The notes beneath the pieces were generated by a model, which saw only the letters and a program-made list of their open reading frames with translations, was not told the DNA's origin and ran no database searches. Below are positions 36,746-42,084 of a stretch of 42,084 nucleotides of DNA, in pieces; within the stretch, counting starts at the first letter, position 1, and every line of letters starts with the position of its first letter. The position numbers were made by a program, and so were the translations under genes. Origin of the DNA: Bacteroidales bacterium (GTDB lineage: Bacteria > Bacteroidota > Bacteroidia > Bacteroidales > UBA932). The DNA is taken from the NCBI GenBank assembly GCA_017550025.1, contig JAFYLU010000098.1, forward strand, positions 1 to 42,084, written 5' to 3'.

Positions 36746-37064
36746 AGAAAAAATTATCAACAAAAAGAAAGGTAAAGGATAACACGAGTCAAAATAATTG
36801 CACTATCTTTGTCATGATAGAACATATTTAACCACACATAGTTATGATCTGAATTTTCATATCGACTATCTTCAAGGTATTTTAGGTTTATATAAAAAGG
36901 TGCAACGCATTGGGAGAGTAAAGAGCTTAATTTAACTAATAATATTTGCCGCGAAGAGTCTTACACGAAAAACAATTAAATACATGACTTTTTTAACACA
37001 AAAGGAATATTATTTGTTATTTTTGTAGTAACTTTGAACCGAGAGGACAAAACAAAATTCAGCG
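36746..37064. other. AT-rich non-coding stretch at the element end
   Basis: About 320 bp without a convincing gene. It contains several -7-like boxes on the plus strand: TATCTTTG near 36802, TATTTTTG at 37018-37025 and TAACTTTG at 37029-37036. None has a well-spaced -33 box. The last two are the best candidates for driving the three-gene module. No attachment-site duplicate of the tRNA was found here. Confidence 0.4.
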
Positions 37065-37751
37065 ATGGCAATATTCCCATTCATAAACCACGTTAGAAGA
37101 AAGAGCTTCGATCGCACTTTCATGAATGAAATTGTATTGTTTTTTACCTATGACCAAATTGATTTGGAAATTGTAAAAGAAGATCTTATAACGATATTGC
37201 CCTCTATTGATTGTTGTTTTTACCCTGAGAAATCAAATAAGAGTAGTATTATCTACACAGATAAGGATACAATTATCACCCTCACTCCTATTGGTGTTTT
37301 AGTAAGCATTCCATCCAAAGAATATAGGGATTTTTCAAAAACGACCTCTATATGGGACCATTTGGAAACCGTTCTGAAGTACATCGGAGTAAATCCATTA
37401 ACATGGACTTTCACTAAGGGAAATCGTTTTGTCTTTAACAAGCCTATCTTAAAAGAACAATACGACGCTGTTTATCATTTGATCTTGTCTCCCAGTCTAC
37501 TTTCAAAAGCAAATGAAAAGCACATGTATGTATCGGAATCCGAGGATCAAACATGTGTTTTTACATGCCGCTTTGGAATGGAAAATTTTCAAGGAAAAGA
37601 CAGTTTAGGCTTAAAGACGATGATTATTTCGCAAGCATATTCCATAGAAGGATTAGCTAGTCAAGTACTGGAAAGAAACGAAGATATGTTTGACTGCTGG
37701 CATTGGTGTGTGAGTGAAAAGACTTTAGCTATCATGAATAATAATGCATAG
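37065..37751 (+). CDS. Unknown protein A of a three-gene overlapping module (TIGR04255-reminiscent)
   Basis: A 228-residue soluble protein with no signal peptide or TM segment. The N-terminus MAIFPFINHVRRKSFDRTFMNEIVL leads into alternating strands (IIYTDKDTIITLTPIGVLVSI). The C-terminus ends in a helix (GLASQVLERNEDMFDCWHW then CVSEKTLAIM). That closing helix recalls the end of the sporadically distributed TIGR04255 proteins, but I am not certain. The stop overlaps the next start by 8 bp. It is AT-rich, unlike genes left of the tRNA. No catalytic motif is evident. Confidence 0.7.
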   Translation: MAIFPFINHVRRKSFDRTFMNEIVLFFTYDQIDLEIVKEDLITILPSIDCCFYPEKSNKSSIIYTDKDTIITLTPIGVLVSIPSKEYRDFSKTTSIWDHLETVLKYIGVNPLTWTFTKGNRFVFNKPILKEQYDAVYHLILSPSLLSKANEKHMYVSESEDQTCVFTCRFGMENFQGKDSLGLKTMIISQAYSIEGLASQVLERNEDMFDCWHWCVSEKTLAIMNNNA

Positions 37752-38361
37752 TAAAATGACGTTTGACGATATACTCATAGAACAAGATACCGAAATGAAA
37801 ATATCGGCACGACAAGTTCTTGACGAAATCAAGGACATGATTAGTTGTGCTTTATCTACTGTAAAAAAATGCTTGGCATTAGGTACTATTACTCTTTCCC
37901 TAATGTCTCTAAGTACTGCACCAGAAAGTTTAATCATTGAAAACAGCGAAACCACTGTTCAATTAGACATTTATCAGCCCCAGCCGTCTATAGATCTCTC
38001 AATCGCTTCCATTTCAGCCGCCCAAATTAGGCTAGAAAAAGAGCTCGGCCAGTTGTGTGACCTCGAAACAGGATGGGATGACAGTACGGCATCAAAGCCC
38101 AAGCCTGCTGCCATCAAACAAGCATCCATGCTAATCTCACAGCTTGACGACAATGTGCTTTCATCTTGCACATTGTTCCCAAGCAATGATTCAGGCATCT
38201 ACCTACAAGGTAAACTTACAAATGGCAAACTATCCATATTTATGGACGGTGAAGTAATGGCATATATAGTAAAAGGGAAAGATAGCAAACTATCTTCAAC
38301 AGCCAAAGTAAACGCTGACACCATCAATTATCTTAATCAAGGGCTCAAAATGTATGTCTAA
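37744..38361 (+). CDS. Unknown protein B of the module, one hydrophobic helix and GWDD motif
   Basis: A 205-residue protein starting at 37744, inside the previous gene; an ATG at 37756 is an alternative. Residues about 45-63 (KCLALGTITLSLMSLS) form a single hydrophobic segment that may be a TM anchor. The part after it contains LCDLETGWDDSTASKPKPAAIKQA. I recognise this as the L-x-x-GWD(G/D)-x-x-(A/S)-x-P motif found in many unassigned proteins encoded in accessory islands. The end has repeated strand patterns (GIYLQGKLTNGKLSIFMDGE). It overlaps the next start by 8 bp. Function unknown; the middle position and coupling imply stoichiometric expression with A and C. Confidence 0.7.
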   Translation: MHSKMTFDDILIEQDTEMKISARQVLDEIKDMISCALSTVKKCLALGTITLSLMSLSTAPESLIIENSETTVQLDIYQPQPSIDLSIASISAAQIRLEKELGQLCDLETGWDDSTASKPKPAAIKQASMLISQLDDNVLSSCTLFPSNDSGIYLQGKLTNGKLSIFMDGEVMAYIVKGKDSKLSSTAKVNADTINYLNQGLKMYV

Positions 38362-38815
38362 TAGTATCGAAAACTCCGAAACTTTACTAAGGCTACTATG
38401 TTCACCTCAATATTATAACGAGGAGTTAAACATAGTCAATCCTGATGCGTTTGACCTTCGCATGCTACCTTCCGGAAAACCTGAAAGTTTCGTTTCACTC
38501 GGTAGAAAGAAATATCTGGCTACTGATGAAGAATTCAACAAATACATAGACTTAGGGCGTCGTATCCATTGGCCTGTATCAACCCCAGCAAACCAGTTTA
38601 CTGCATACGGAGAATTTAATTGCGAGGATGCCAGAGAGGTACATCAGATGATACAAATCAAAGCATTAGATAAAAGTAATGCATGGCATATTGGTCTTTA
38701 TTACTATAAGCAAAATGACGAATGCTATGAAGGGCCATTACCCAAAACAGATCCAGAAATCCTTGAAATGTTATCCGATCTTTCCGACTTACTGGTTGTA
38801 ACCCGCATCAAATAA
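38354..38815 (+). CDS. Unknown protein C of the module
   Basis: A 153-residue soluble protein, ATG at 38354 within the end of gene B. The beginning (LLRLLCSPQYYNEELNIVNPDAF, then LPSGKPESFVSLGR) has the look of small proteins with an [N/R]-x-x-AF ... S(V/L)-x-R layout often found beside GWDG-motif proteins. This is a recollection of a pattern, not a database result. The remainder (YGEFNCEDAREVHQMIQIKALD, WHIGLYYYKQNDE, PEILEMLSDLSDLLVV) alternates strands and helices. No catalytic residues are obvious. It ends before a convergent, decayed gene on the other strand. Confidence 0.68.
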   Translation: MSNSIENSETLLRLLCSPQYYNEELNIVNPDAFDLRMLPSGKPESFVSLGRKKYLATDEEFNKYIDLGRRIHWPVSTPANQFTAYGEFNCEDAREVHQMIQIKALDKSNAWHIGLYYYKQNDECYEGPLPKTDPEILEMLSDLSDLLVVTRIK

Positions 38816-39075
38816 GGCAGCGCACCATAAGCGTCCGATAGTAGAAGACTTGACACATATTTTTCAACTTTATTCCAATTCGCTTCAAGCTGGGACATTT
38901 CTTCCAAGTCCGTCCAACTTGGTGTAAGCATACGATAAAGCACATCTAGATAAGATTTGCCGCTACTTCCTGCATGCTTCAGGAAGTAGCGGCAATATGT
39001 TCAAAGTGGCAGCAAGTTGCTCTTAGTCCCGGCCAGCTGCAAGGGAATAAGCTTGATCGGATACTTACTGGGCAT
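38725..39075 (-). pseudogene. Small reading frame interrupted by an in-frame TGA, decayed or recoded
   Basis: On the minus strand an ATG at 39075 opens MPSKYPIKLIPLQLAGTKSN and runs to a TGA at 39003-39001. The same frame continues without a stop to 38725 (TYCRYFLKHAGSSGKSYLDV, then LYRMLTPSWTDLEEMSQLEA). Both halves look protein-like; the last third is antisense to protein C and probably not meaningful. The TGA is followed 5 nt later by a perfect 16-bp hairpin. The simplest reading is a broken gene remnant. Read-through or selenocysteine is a less likely alternative treated in the findings. Family not recognised. Confidence 0.35.
38957..38995. repeat. Perfect 16-bp inverted repeat
   Basis: TTGCCGCTACTTCCTG (38957-38972) and its exact reverse complement (38980-38995) with the 7-nt spacer CATGCTT. 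There is no T-run on either strand, so it is not a typical intrinsic terminator. It lies within the interrupted minus-strand frame and about 140 bp past the stop of protein C. Confidence 0.8.
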
Positions 39076-39229: not shown

Positions 39230-40057
39230 TCAAACCTTCAAGTGATTATCTAGCAATAGTACCTTTTTTACTCCATTTTCCGTATAAGAATAATCACTAT
39301 TAACGTCTATGATTCCTGCTGTTTTCTTCGCATGGCAATTGGGGCATAGAACTAAAAGATTATCTATGGTCTCACCTCCTCCTTCTGACTTTGGCAGGAT
39401 GTGATCGACCTCAATAATCCAACGCTGTTTACCAGCCGAGTTTGTATATGGCTGGTAGAATCCACATATCTGACATGTATGATTTTCTATAGTAGCGATT
39501 CGTTCTTTTTGACATCTACTTTCATGGCGAACTTTATAAGAATGAGCCATCACATATTGTTCTTCAAAATCCTTAAATGAACGTGCTGCCTCCATTATCT
39601 TATTATGATCTTGCTGATTGATGATGTCAATATACGAGTCATCCTCCATCGGTTTAAAAAATTCTGTTAGATCTAACTCATAATCTTTAGAGTGGAGTAT
39701 ATACTTATCATCATCTATTCTTATTCTCAAGAAATAGCGCAGTTCACCTTTATAGAGTTTGGAGTTAGCATAATCAGTGTATTGAGAGAGAATCTCCATA
39801 GGAATCAACAATAAACCTCTTTTACCAACTGTTTGACAGATATACTTCACCCCATATTTTCTGAAAAAGTCAAGAAACGCACTACTCCACAAATGTTCAC
39901 CACTATATTCATTATATATACGAGAGTTGGTGATAGCCATGAAACCTTGTGCTGTCCTAAAAATCAATTTTCTATGAACTTGTTCTAACGGAAGGAATGA
40001 ATTCGGTAAAATGCTTTTGATTTCATTTATATCCAGATATTTCCCACTATTATACAT
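39230..40057 (-). CDS. HNH endonuclease family protein
   Basis: A 275-residue protein whose C-terminal third is a zinc-stabilised HNH nuclease. Cys195-x2-Cys198 (CQIC) and Cys238-x2-Cys241 (CPNC) are probable zinc ligands, with the core VDHILPKSEGGG (Asp218-His219), DNLLVLCPNCHAKK after it. The first 190 residues are of mixed alpha/beta character (SGEHLWSSAFLDFFRKYGVKYI, ELRYFLRIRIDDDKYILHSKDY) and could recognise DNA or a partner; I do not recognise that part. No methyltransferase is adjacent, so this is not an obvious restriction pair. A solitary defence nuclease, Mcr-like enzyme or homing-type role are all possible. The gene is AT-rich like its neighbours. Confidence 0.85.
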   Translation of the reverse strand: MYNSGKYLDINEIKSILPNSFLPLEQVHRKLIFRTAQGFMAITNSRIYNEYSGEHLWSSAFLDFFRKYGVKYICQTVGKRGLLLIPMEILSQYTDYANSKLYKGELRYFLRIRIDDDKYILHSKDYELDLTEFFKPMEDDSYIDIINQQDHNKIMEAARSFKDFEEQYVMAHSYKVRHESRCQKERIATIENHTCQICGFYQPYTNSAGKQRWIIEVDHILPKSEGGGETIDNLLVLCPNCHAKKTAGIIDVNSDYSYTENGVKKVLLLDNHLKV

Positions 40058-40204: not shown

Positions 40205-40753
40205 TTACCAATCTTCCTCTACCGCCTTATAGTTCAAGATATTGTATATTAAAGAGTTCATCTTATCATTGTATTCATCAATGACTTTTTTCTTATTCGG
40301 TTTAGAATTCACAACACCTTGAACGAAGAAGTTCTGAGTATTCAGCCATCCTGTGAAGTTTGTAGTGATTTTTCCACTATCAAAACGAATGCTCACAACT
40401 TGCGGCGAATTAATACGAATTTTGCCGTCCTTAAACAATATCGTAATAGAGTAATTTACAGAGACGATATTCATACCATAATGTAAACACTCTTTAGCAT
40501 ACCCATTAATTGTAATAGACTCATTCTCTACAACAGACAGAACATCCTTCGGTGACACATACATTGCAGATGAGGACACCAAAATATCTGAATATAGTTC
40601 AGATTTTGTTTTACCTGGAAATTCTACAACGATATAACTCTTATCGTTAGCTACCATTGTTCCATCTACTTGCAAAGCAAATTTGTCTGGAATTACTTGA
40701 GCCCAAAGTCCCATAGACATTAGAAGTCCACAAATGACCAATAACTTTTTCAT
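40205..40753 (-). CDS. DUF4468-like secreted protein
   Basis: A 182-residue protein starting at 40753 with a clear signal peptide (MKKLLVICGLLMSMGLWAQ); an in-frame ATG seven codons earlier is not needed. The mature part (SYIVVEFPGKTKSELYSDIL, DVLSVVENESITINGYA, then IRINSPQVVSIRFDSGKIT) matches my recollection of the DUF4468 TBP-like-fold domain found in many Bacteroidota secreted proteins. Function unknown. It sits alone on the minus strand in the element, followed by a 20-bp hairpin. Confidence 0.72.
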   Translation of the reverse strand: MKKLLVICGLLMSMGLWAQVIPDKFALQVDGTMVANDKSYIVVEFPGKTKSELYSDILVSSSAMYVSPKDVLSVVENESITINGYAKECLHYGMNIVSVNYSITILFKDGKIRINSPQVVSIRFDSGKITTNFTGWLNTQNFFVQGVVNSKPNKKKVIDEYNDKMNSLIYNILNYKAVEEDW

Positions 40754-40781
40754 AATCTTGAACTTATCAAACAAATAGCCC

Positions 40782-41072: not shown

Positions 41073-42084
41073 CTACAATTTCGGTCCCCTCCAGATTTCT
41101 TGCCGGTGGCTTCTTTCGTGATCTTCCCGGGCTCTTTCCCAGTTGGATTTGCCGACGATGTCTTTAAGACCTATCCGGACGAGTTTTTCCACGAGTTCTG
41201 GTTGGAAGTGTTTGAAGATGAATAACAGGACATTTCTCAGGCGAAGATTACTGTCGCTGACGGTCGTACGGAGAGAGGCGTTGTTGGATCGGAGATCCTG
41301 GTTCTCCCTTTCAAGTCTGATTCCGTTGGCTGACAGGCAACGGATTTCTTCTTTAATCTTTTCCTTTTCGCTGCCGAGATCTGCGATCATACGGTCTTTA
41401 GCGGTAAGAGCTTCACGATAGGAGTCGGTCTGATCCTTCATCTGCGCCTGACTATCCTCCAGCGCCTTGGAAAGACCTCGCACTTTCGGAGATATACCCA
41501 ATCCATCCGTCACTCTGTCGAAAACGGTCTTAGCTGCGGATTTGACGGACTTCTGTAGTTCTATCTTTCCGAGCTCAACCTTTTGCAGATGAACTTCATC
41601 CTTGATGCGATCGAGCAATGCAGACAGACCGATGATGACCTTCGACAGCGAGCCCTCCAGTTTTGACAGCATTCGATATATAGCAGGGACATCCCTTTGT
41701 GCCAACACCTTCGAATCATCCCGAAGCGTATCACGGCGTAGTTCTTCCGCATCTTTCTTCAACGGCTCGTCGGCATATCCGGATACCTTGTCATATTCCT
41801 TGAGGGTGACTGTCGCTTGTTCTTTTGTGTCGAGGTATGTGTTGGTTACCATTTCTGACACTCGATCATACTGCGTACGAAGTTCCGATATTTCAGACCT
41901 CTGTTTTTCGATTGTGGATTCTTGTTCTTCAACGGACTTCTTCAACAGGTCATTGCTCTTGACCAGTTCCTCATTCGCTGACTGCATTTCATTGTATGTC
42001 TGTTCCAACGCCTTCACCTCCTCCGCAATAACCTGTGCCTTGTACCTTTGGGCATCGAGATGTACCTTGTCGCTGGCTACACCT
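41073..42084 (-). CDS. C-terminal part of a MobV/Pre-like mobilization protein (truncated by window)
   Basis: The frame is open to the right edge, so the N-terminus lies outside; 336 codons plus stop are seen. Most of it is a long coiled coil (LEQTYNEMQSANEELVKSND, EKEKIKEEIRCLSANGIRLE). It ends in SDSNLRLRNVLLFIFKHFQP and a short basic tail, an arrangement I know from the plasmid-recombination/mobilization (Pre/MobV) relaxases of Bacteroidales mobilizable elements. The catalytic histidine motifs would be in the missing part. Other long coiled-coil proteins could look similar. It is the main evidence that the right-hand region is mobilizable. Confidence 0.7.
   Translation of the reverse strand, partial: GVASDKVHLDAQRYKAQVIAEEVKALEQTYNEMQSANEELVKSNDLLKKSVEEQESTIEKQRSEISELRTQYDRVSEMVTNTYLDTKEQATVTLKEYDKVSGYADEPLKKDAEELRRDTLRDDSKVLAQRDVPAIYRMLSKLEGSLSKVIIGLSALLDRIKDEVHLQKVELGKIELQKSVKSAAKTVFDRVTDGLGISPKVRGLSKALEDSQAQMKDQTDSYREALTAKDRMIADLGSEKEKIKEEIRCLSANGIRLERENQDLRSNNASLRTTVSDSNLRLRNVLLFIFKHFQPELVEKLVRIGLKDIVGKSNWERAREDHERSHRQEIWRGPKL

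What the first reader, a model, noticed from the sequence alone, without database searches (positions are those of the whole stretch)
37065..38815. Three-gene overlapping module of unknown function in a mobile element
Three consecutive genes overlap by exactly 8 bp at both junctions, so they are expected to be translated together. They encode a soluble TIGR04255-reminiscent protein, a protein with one hydrophobic helix and a GWDD motif, and a third small soluble protein. They occupy the tRNA-proximal end of an AT-rich mobile segment, a usual place for defence or competition cargo, and none has a recognisable enzyme motif. The combination looks like a conserved cassette rather than chance hypotheticals. 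A defence, toxin/immunity or stress role is inference only.
Basis: partly seen in the sequence, partly recalled or inferred. Interest (0 to 1): 0.72.

Follow-up and report, generated by a model that had tools for sequence, protein, structure and literature searches.

The report
Three-gene cassette resembling phage defence systems
Three overlapping genes form one unit of a widespread, untested bacterial gene cassette that keeps two partner genes together and swaps the third; relatives lie beside known phage-defence genes and in viral contigs, so it may be a new form of bacterial immunity.

Summary
The three genes are real and form one operon: A 37065-37751, B 37744-38361, C 38354-38815, with 8-bp overlaps ATGCATAG and ATGTCTAA. 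B and C belong to a recurrent gene pair. B carries a W-motif domain that matches the C-terminal domain of PADLOC's phage-defence candidate PDC-M32A (E 3.9e-6). C is a remote relative of PDC-M32B with near-invariant R, F, S and H. In all 46 distinct C loci compared, a B match lies within 700 bp upstream. The first gene varies: DUF3467, DUF6941, TIGR04255, an unnamed about 223-aa type, or a domain fused to B. Window A has no relative in the sets searched; its TIGR04255 likeness is weak (hhalign E 0.02; 4 of 200 shuffles reach the score).

Eight of ten hand-picked neighbours of relatives match PADLOC models (Lamassu, Septu, restriction, two candidates), and relatives occur in viral contigs. Best reading: a toxin-antitoxin-like defence module with C as effector, B as its partner and A as an exchangeable trigger or chaperone-like subunit. 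The family assignment is sequence evidence; the mechanism is inference. No structure could be predicted.

The parts
37065..37751 (+). Gene A, 228 aa, slot-1 protein; possibly a far-diverged TIGR04255-like protein
   Evidence: no hit at E<=1 in Pfam, NCBIfam or PADLOC, one PHROG hit at E 0.12; only own genome among 393 of the order; hhalign to TIGR04255 E 0.02-0.022
37744..38361 (+). Gene B, 205 aa; variable N-terminal part and C-terminal W-motif domain (about residues 85-205)
   Evidence: PADLOC PDC-M32A E 3.9e-6, residues 100-195 to 264-360 of 375; found by a family profile built without window and L069 at E 3.9e-10
38008..38358 (+). W-motif domain of B; W111 in 36 of 36 rows, P146 in 34 of 36
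38354..38815 (+). Gene C, 153 aa; small protein with conserved R13, F33, S48, H112; proposed effector
   Evidence: 48% identical to C of L069; family profile without window and L069 finds it at E 6.8e-4; hhalign of the pair window+L069 against the rest prob 79.8, E 1.5e-5; no direct PADLOC, Pfam or NCBIfam hit
37744..37751 (+). A/B overlap ATGCATAG, 8 bp
38354..38361 (+). B/C overlap ATGTCTAA, 8 bp
37018..37036 (+). Two TAnnTTTG boxes (37018 and 37029), 39 and 28 nt before A; possible Bacteroidota-type promoter (consensus recalled; no -33 TTTG at 19-21 nt)
38958..38994 (.). 15-bp perfect inverted repeat with 7-nt loop between C and the convergent HNH gene; possible terminator
   Evidence: Read by eye in the sequence

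Best explanation
A, B and C form one translationally coupled operon. It is a diverged three-gene form of a modular, defence-type system whose constant core is the pair B+C, related to the two genes of PADLOC's candidate PDC-M32. It most likely works like a toxin-antitoxin or abortive-infection module. C is the effector that harms or arrests the cell; its conserved R, S and H may form an active site. B is C's cognate partner that holds it inactive, perhaps through its W-motif domain. A fills an exchangeable slot 1 and couples the B-C complex to a trigger, as a sensor or as a chaperone-like subunit. Supported by sequence: the three genes, the B-C family, the varying slot 1, the presence of defence genes or viral context in a number of relatives. 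Inferred: defence function, which partner is toxic, and A's role.
For: (1) A B match lies within 700 bp upstream of C in 20 of 20 loci fetched by C profile, 23 of 23 and 8 of 8 (sets overlap; 46 distinct loci). Loci not used to build the profiles also show it: L099 and L109 and 8 of 9 viral loci, the ninth being cut at its contig end (L111/L112 and L116/L117 look alike, so these are fewer independent cases). (2) Slot 1 varies while B-C stays: DUF3467 type 11 loci, DUF6941 type 6, TIGR04255 6, about 223-aa type 3, PDC-M32A N-terminal domain fused to B 8, none assigned 12 including the window (L059 and L071 added). Pairwise hhalign of the five slot-1 profiles gives probabilities of at most 2.45. 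(3) In PDC-M32A a domain takes the slot-1 place in one chain with the W-motif domain, which suggests that slot 1 and B act together (inference). (4) C has S48 in 35/35, F33 and H112 in 34/35, R13 in 32/35. (5) C is broken or truncated in 7 of 48 loci and in 6 of these B is whole; no locus shows B split over frames with C whole. (6) 8 of 10 hand-picked neighbours match PADLOC models, among them LmuA near L069, the closest B-C pair found (listed, tested). (7) Relatives lie in viral contigs: one cassette about 1.8 kb after an amidase-like gene, one before genes that look like terminase and portal. (8) TIGR04255 operons also carry other third genes: DUF7689 (L091, L092) and a weak HEPN match (L058, E 0.0043, below cut-off).
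Against: No functional data. Window C matches no PADLOC, Pfam or NCBIfam model directly; C of L011, L037, L059 and L069 also match no PADLOC model at E<=1; only L009 and L013 give the link to PDC-M32B. No solved structure by sequence. A has no convincing relative, and L069 lacks a slot-1 gene, so A could be accidental. The defence neighbours were picked by eye and have no control set; two of the eight models are themselves candidates (PDC-S60, HEC-05). 6 of the 7 broken-C loci are from one genus (g253) in draft assemblies, so few independent events; four loci with whole C have a B match that covers only 0.72-0.79 of the profile (L052, L062, L063, L099). The W-motif domain of B has no known antitoxin relative in the searches made. 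No fold could be predicted.
Confidence: 0.5

Rival explanations
1. The B-C pair is a maintenance (addiction) or superinfection-exclusion module that serves the mobile element or prophage itself, not the host's defence.
For: Copies in viral contigs; relatives of C of L002 on three plasmid records predicted to be mobilizable (B not checked there); the window copy lies in an AT-rich stretch beside a tRNA.
Against: Several copies lie within about 3.5 kb of Lamassu, Septu-type or restriction genes. Exchange of slot 1 fits diversification against changing triggers better than plasmid addiction (inference).
Confidence: 0.25
2. The roles are reversed: B is the harmful part (its hydrophobic N-terminal part acts on membranes) and C is the inhibitor.
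For: Some B proteins have a hydrophobic N-terminal stretch (up to 2.00).
Against: The stretch is weak in the window (1.32) and in many relatives. C carries the near-invariant polar residues. C, not B, is the gene found broken.
Confidence: 0.12
3. A is an unrelated passenger; only B and C form a unit.
For: A has no detectable relative in the order sample, plasmids or viral contigs. L069, the closest B-C pair found, has no first gene. 12 of 46 loci have no assigned slot-1 gene.
Against: The 8-bp A/B overlap; 34 of 46 loci have an assigned slot-1 gene or fused domain; A scores best with TIGR04255 of five slot-1 families, though weakly.
Confidence: 0.2
4. The module has no conflict role, for example regulation or metabolism carried by islands.
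For: No known catalytic family; several Lachnospiraceae copies lie among ordinary genes (by eye).
Against: Patchy distribution (8 of 384 order genomes, own included), broken copies, viral and defence-gene context.
Confidence: 0.13

Closest known systems
PDC-M32 (PADLOC phage-defence candidate, PDC-M32A + PDC-M32B)
   Same: B's C-terminal domain matches about the last 100 residues of PDC-M32A. C's family links to PDC-M32B through L009 (E 7.1e-4) and L013 (E 1.5e-4). Same gene order, close spacing.
   Different: The N-terminal about 260 residues of PDC-M32A are missing from B, and a separate gene A without detectable relation takes that place. Window C does not hit PDC-M32B directly.
TIGR04255 three-gene operons (TIGR04255 + W-motif B + C)
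   Same: Same order, similar sizes and the B-C pair in L059, L060, L062, L063, L068, L071, L099, L109.
   Different: Window A is not recognised by the TIGR04255 model and only weakly similar by profile.
CmdTAC and other toxin-antitoxin-chaperone systems
   Same: Three-part operon in which one part varies widely between homologues (there the antitoxin); TA-like phage defence (PMC11618068 and PMC9519451, passages read).
   Different: CmdT has an H-Y-[E,D,Q] triad and the order is T-A-C. C shows R, F, S and H in near-invariant positions. No SecB-like protein was shown here.
B-C pair of L069/L081 (same order, near LmuA)
   Same: C 48% and B 34% identical to the window proteins.
   Different: No slot-1 gene directly upstream; B reads GWDG and has no hydrophobic N-terminal part.

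Membership tests
PDC-M32 | Protein with PDC-M32A C-terminal domain | tested here: met
   E 3.9e-6, positions 264-360 of 375
PDC-M32 | Full-length PDC-M32A including the N-terminal about 260 residues | tested here: not met
   Only positions 264-360 matched; B is 205 aa
PDC-M32 | Adjacent PDC-M32B | tested here: inconclusive
   No direct hit at E<=1; family link by leave-out profile E 6.8e-4 and hhalign prob 79.8
TIGR04255 | A scores above the family cut-off of 30 bits | tested here: not met
   No hit at E<=1
TIGR04255 | Profile-profile similarity like that of true members | tested here: inconclusive
   Score 19.8, reached by 4 of 200 shuffles; seven left-out true members score 46.8-85.6
CmdTAC / TAC | ADP-ribosyltransferase toxin with H-Y-[E,D,Q] | tested here: inconclusive
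   No fold available; near-invariant residues of C are R, F, S, H; no Pfam hit
CmdTAC / TAC | SecB-like chaperone | not tested
   No SecB profile was compared on its own; A gave no Pfam hit; A was not searched against solved structures
Toxin-antitoxin module | One gene toxic alone, the partner neutralises it | not testable with these tools
   Needs expression tests
B-C family described here | W-motif domain protein followed at once by the R/F/S/H protein | tested here: met
   Window recovered by profiles without it and without L069: B E 3.9e-10, C E 6.8e-4, both top of 502 frames

The most novel reading that the evidence does not exclude
The window carries one member of a so far unnamed, widespread class of three-slot immune operons. 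Slot 2-3 pairs (adaptor or antitoxin plus effector) are combined with exchangeable slot-1 subunits (TIGR04255, DUF3467, DUF6941 and others) that set the trigger, and slot-1 families such as TIGR04255 in turn serve several unlike effector pairs. C would be a new effector type with an R-S-H active site.
Probability: 0.35. Interest if true: 0.8.

Novelty: new variant of a known kind. Interest (0 to 1): 0.58.

Why it matters
PADLOC lists PDC-M32 as a candidate only; the one paper in the library that names it calls it hypothetical (PMC12429752, two passages). The present comparison shows that its core is part of a larger family with a varying first gene, and puts several uncharacterised families (TIGR04255, DUF3467 and DUF6941 type proteins) into a common operon setting. 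If the TA-like reading holds, a small set of expression tests would explain them together and give a rule for finding more: look for the constant B-C pair and read what stands before it.

Tried and rejected
Relatives in plasmid and phage records: window B and A against plasmids and window C against phages gave none; window C against plasmids and A and B against phages were not run. C of L011, L013, L037, L069 and L059 against plasmids and of L045 against phages gave none; only C of L002 found three plasmids. Genome-contig scan with window B alone found nothing. Viral scans with A5, window A and A11 found nothing. The window's C subtype in the family of L069's genome: 1 of 14, L069 itself. Solved structures by sequence: nothing convincing for C, DUF3467 type, TIGR04255 or the B domain (lowest E 0.39). 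L011's first gene as a relative of window A or of TIGR04255: not supported. A second att copy: none found in the own assembly; in the window one further site with 2 mismatches, no more than chance. Hydrophobic helix as defining feature: rejected. Literature: TIGR04255 in 0 papers, PDC-M32 in 1, DUF3467 in 1 that I saw only in the listing, DUF6941, DUF7689 and LIC11631 in 0; the library holds open-licence PMC papers only. Papers and 101 other than the three cited were seen as listings only.

Full report
What is there. The window is a whole contig, C106 of a 121-contig draft genome. The phylum is inferred to be Bacteroidota, since a locus of a same-phylum genome (L011) coincides with a contig titled 'Bacteroidetes bacterium' (L054). 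Three + strand ORFs lie 385 bp after a tRNA-Arg gene: A 37065-37751, B 37744-38361, C 38354-38815. The overlaps are ATGCATAG and ATGTCTAA. GC falls from about 0.50 to 0.35-0.41. Two TAnnTTTG boxes stand 39 and 28 nt before A (consensus recalled), and a 15-bp perfect inverted repeat at 38958-38994 separates C from a convergent HNH gene (sequence, by eye). So A-B-C is probably one transcription unit.

Direct searches. A, B and C match no Pfam model at E<=1. In NCBIfam only a chance-level repeat model appears for B (E 0.087), in PHROGs only one family for A (E 0.12). PADLOC gives B a partial match to PDC-M32A, E 3.9e-6, residues 100-195 to 264-360 of 375, and nothing for A or C.

The family. A search with PDC-M32A found 13 of 296 phylum genomes, own included. 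Some hold a full PDC-M32A plus a small gene, others a shorter B-like gene with a small gene after it. The small gene of L002 is PDC-M32B (E 4.1e-52); those of L009 and L013 match PDC-M32B at E 7.1e-4 and 1.5e-4; that of L011 matches nothing, nor do those of L037, L059 and L069. Profiles of the small gene (C) then found 17 of 395 phylum genomes and 8 of 384 order genomes, own included in both, 23 loci in named genome contigs from Bacteroidota, Chlorobiaceae, Lachnospiraceae, Clostridiales, Synergistaceae and Scatousia and 9 loci in viral contigs.

Is the window a member? Profiles rebuilt without the window and its nearest relative L069 still rank window B and window C first among 502 window frames, E 3.9e-10 and 6.8e-4 (next best 0.067 and 0.83); profile-profile comparison of the pair window+L069 with the rest gives probability 97 (B) and 80 (C). 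L069 itself is 48% identical in C and 34% in B.

The constant pair. In every one of 46 distinct loci with a C match, a B match lies within 700 bp upstream on the same strand (48 rows, two loci being split in two by a stop in C; L006 and L007, from two genomes, are counted once). B was not used to fetch the loci. The profiles were built from most of these loci, so their E-values there are not independent. L099 and L109 and the viral loci, not used for the profiles, repeat the pattern: B upstream in 2 of 2 and in 8 of 9, the ninth being cut by its contig end; L111/L112 and L116/L117 look alike. W111 of B is in 36 of 36 rows, and the next-but-one position (D113 in the window) is G in 25 of 36. 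In C, S48 is in 35 of 35, F33 and H112 in 34 of 35, R13 in 32 of 35.

The varying first gene. Upstream of B stand genes of unlike types: DUF3467 type in 11 loci, DUF6941 type in 6, TIGR04255 in 6, an unnamed type of 221-225 aa in 3; in 8 loci a domain in one chain with B (PDC-M32A); none assigned in 12, the window among them (L059 and L071 were missed by the distance rule and added). Pfam supports DUF3467 (E 5.6e-6, above cut-off, in L037; E 0.0015, below it, in L040) and DUF6941 (E 2.1e-6 and 8.5e-7, above cut-off); NCBIfam supports TIGR04255 in L068 and L071. The five types show no relation to each other (highest hhalign probability 2.45).

Window A. It is found only in its own genome (1 of 393). 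Against 21 TIGR04255 proteins its hhalign score is 19.8, E 0.022, over 77 columns at the C-terminal end; 4 of 200 shuffles reach this, the other four slot-1 types score 12.7-14.1, and seven left-out true members score 46.8-85.6. With a smaller profile it scored 21.6, first of 32 window ORFs and above 40 shuffles (maximum 19.6). So A may be a far-diverged TIGR04255-like protein, but this is not shown.

TIGR04255 elsewhere. TIGR04255 occurs in 6 of 118 phylum genomes; 4 of the 6 loci continue with B and C. In the order it occurs in 18 of 384 genomes at E<=0.01, with 16 places above the cut-off; 4 of these 16 continue with B-C (L068/L100, L071/L098, L099, L109). I read 15 of the 19 loci; two more are L068 and L071 again, and the fragments L107 and L108 were not read. 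The others carry different second and third genes, among them DUF7689 (L091, L092) and, in L058, a weak HEPN match below the cut-off. So both ends of the cassette appear to vary, with slots 2 and 3 changing together.

Setting. I picked ten neighbour genes by eye from the ORF tables (and earlier) and tested them: 8 of 10 match PADLOC models: LmuA, type I restriction, type I, II and III methyltransferases, PtuA, and the candidates HEC-05 and PDC-S60; L080 and L041 gave none. All eight lie within about 3.5 kb of the pair. There is no control set, so this is no enrichment test. LmuA stands near L069, the closest B-C pair found. In viral contigs, L110 has DUF3467-B-C about 1.8 kb after an amidase-like gene, L112 has B-C before terminase-like and portal-like genes, and L113-L115 have PDC-M32 after regulator-like genes (phage gene names by eye). 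In the window the next gene is an HNH nuclease with a partial PADLOC type IV restriction match, E 1.6e-9.

Which gene is harmful? In 48 loci C is interrupted or truncated in 7 (L026, L030-L034, L043), and B is whole in 6 of these; in L030 B is broken too. No locus shows B split over frames with C whole, though in L052, L062, L063 and L099 the B match covers only 0.72-0.79 of the profile in an open frame. This fits C as the costly gene, but 6 of the 7 belong to one genus and are draft assemblies. The polar invariants of C, and the other third genes of TIGR04255 operons, point the same way. None of this is proof.

Comparison with known systems. The window operon shares B's domain and, remotely, C with PDC-M32, which is a computed candidate; the library's one paper naming it calls it hypothetical (PMC12429752, two passages). 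It is not a PDC-M32 member in the strict sense, since the N-terminal part of PDC-M32A is absent.

Verdict. Most likely a TA-like defence module; confidence about 0.5 for the mechanism, and much higher for the family assignment of B and C.

Noticed in passing
L093, L095, L096, L097, L103, L104, L105, L106: TIGR04255 genes (a partial match in L106) are followed by a 143-211 aa protein with a motif like [SN]xxCD[LV] (seen by eye; the three tested, L093, L097 and L103-L104 group, matched no Pfam family above cut-off), with a small gene between in L093, L096, L097, L103 and L106; looks like a second recurrent TIGR04255 operon.
   Followed up: partly
L091:630-1070 and L092:1815-2411: Third gene of two further TIGR04255 operons is DUF7689 (E 4.3e-38, 2.2e-33).
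   Followed up: partly
L069:1405-1893: C of L069 has a weak match to NCBIfam LIC11631 family (E 7.3e-4, 19.4 bits against a cut-off of 185).
   Followed up: no
window 39230-40057 (-): HNH nuclease gene convergent with the operon; PF01844 E 9.1e-12, PADLOC type IV restriction model E 1.6e-9.
   Followed up: partly
window 38958-38994: 15-bp perfect inverted repeat with 7-nt loop between two convergent genes.
   Followed up: no
window 40205-40774 (-): Protein with a sub-threshold DUF4468 match (E 0.0017) and a signal-like N-terminus (by eye).
   Followed up: no
window 41073-42017 (-): Long coiled-coil-like protein near the contig end; may be the tail of a mobilisation protein (by eye; no curated model reached its cut-off).
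   Followed up: no
L110:1287-5399: Viral contig with an amidase-like gene and, about 1.8 kb on, a DUF3467-B-C cassette.
   Followed up: partly
L112:4433-10141: B-C pair upstream of genes that look like terminase and portal (by eye).
   Followed up: no
L045:1-3975: B-C pair between genes that look like phage terminase and portal (by eye); the small gene upstream resembles DUF3467 proteins by eye only.
   Followed up: no
L081:4735-7619: LmuA and an ATPase-like gene (by eye) near the closest relative of the window B-C pair.
   Followed up: partly
L050:3561-4007: B fused to what look like the first residues of a DUF6941-type protein, as if slot 1 had been deleted (by eye).
   Followed up: no
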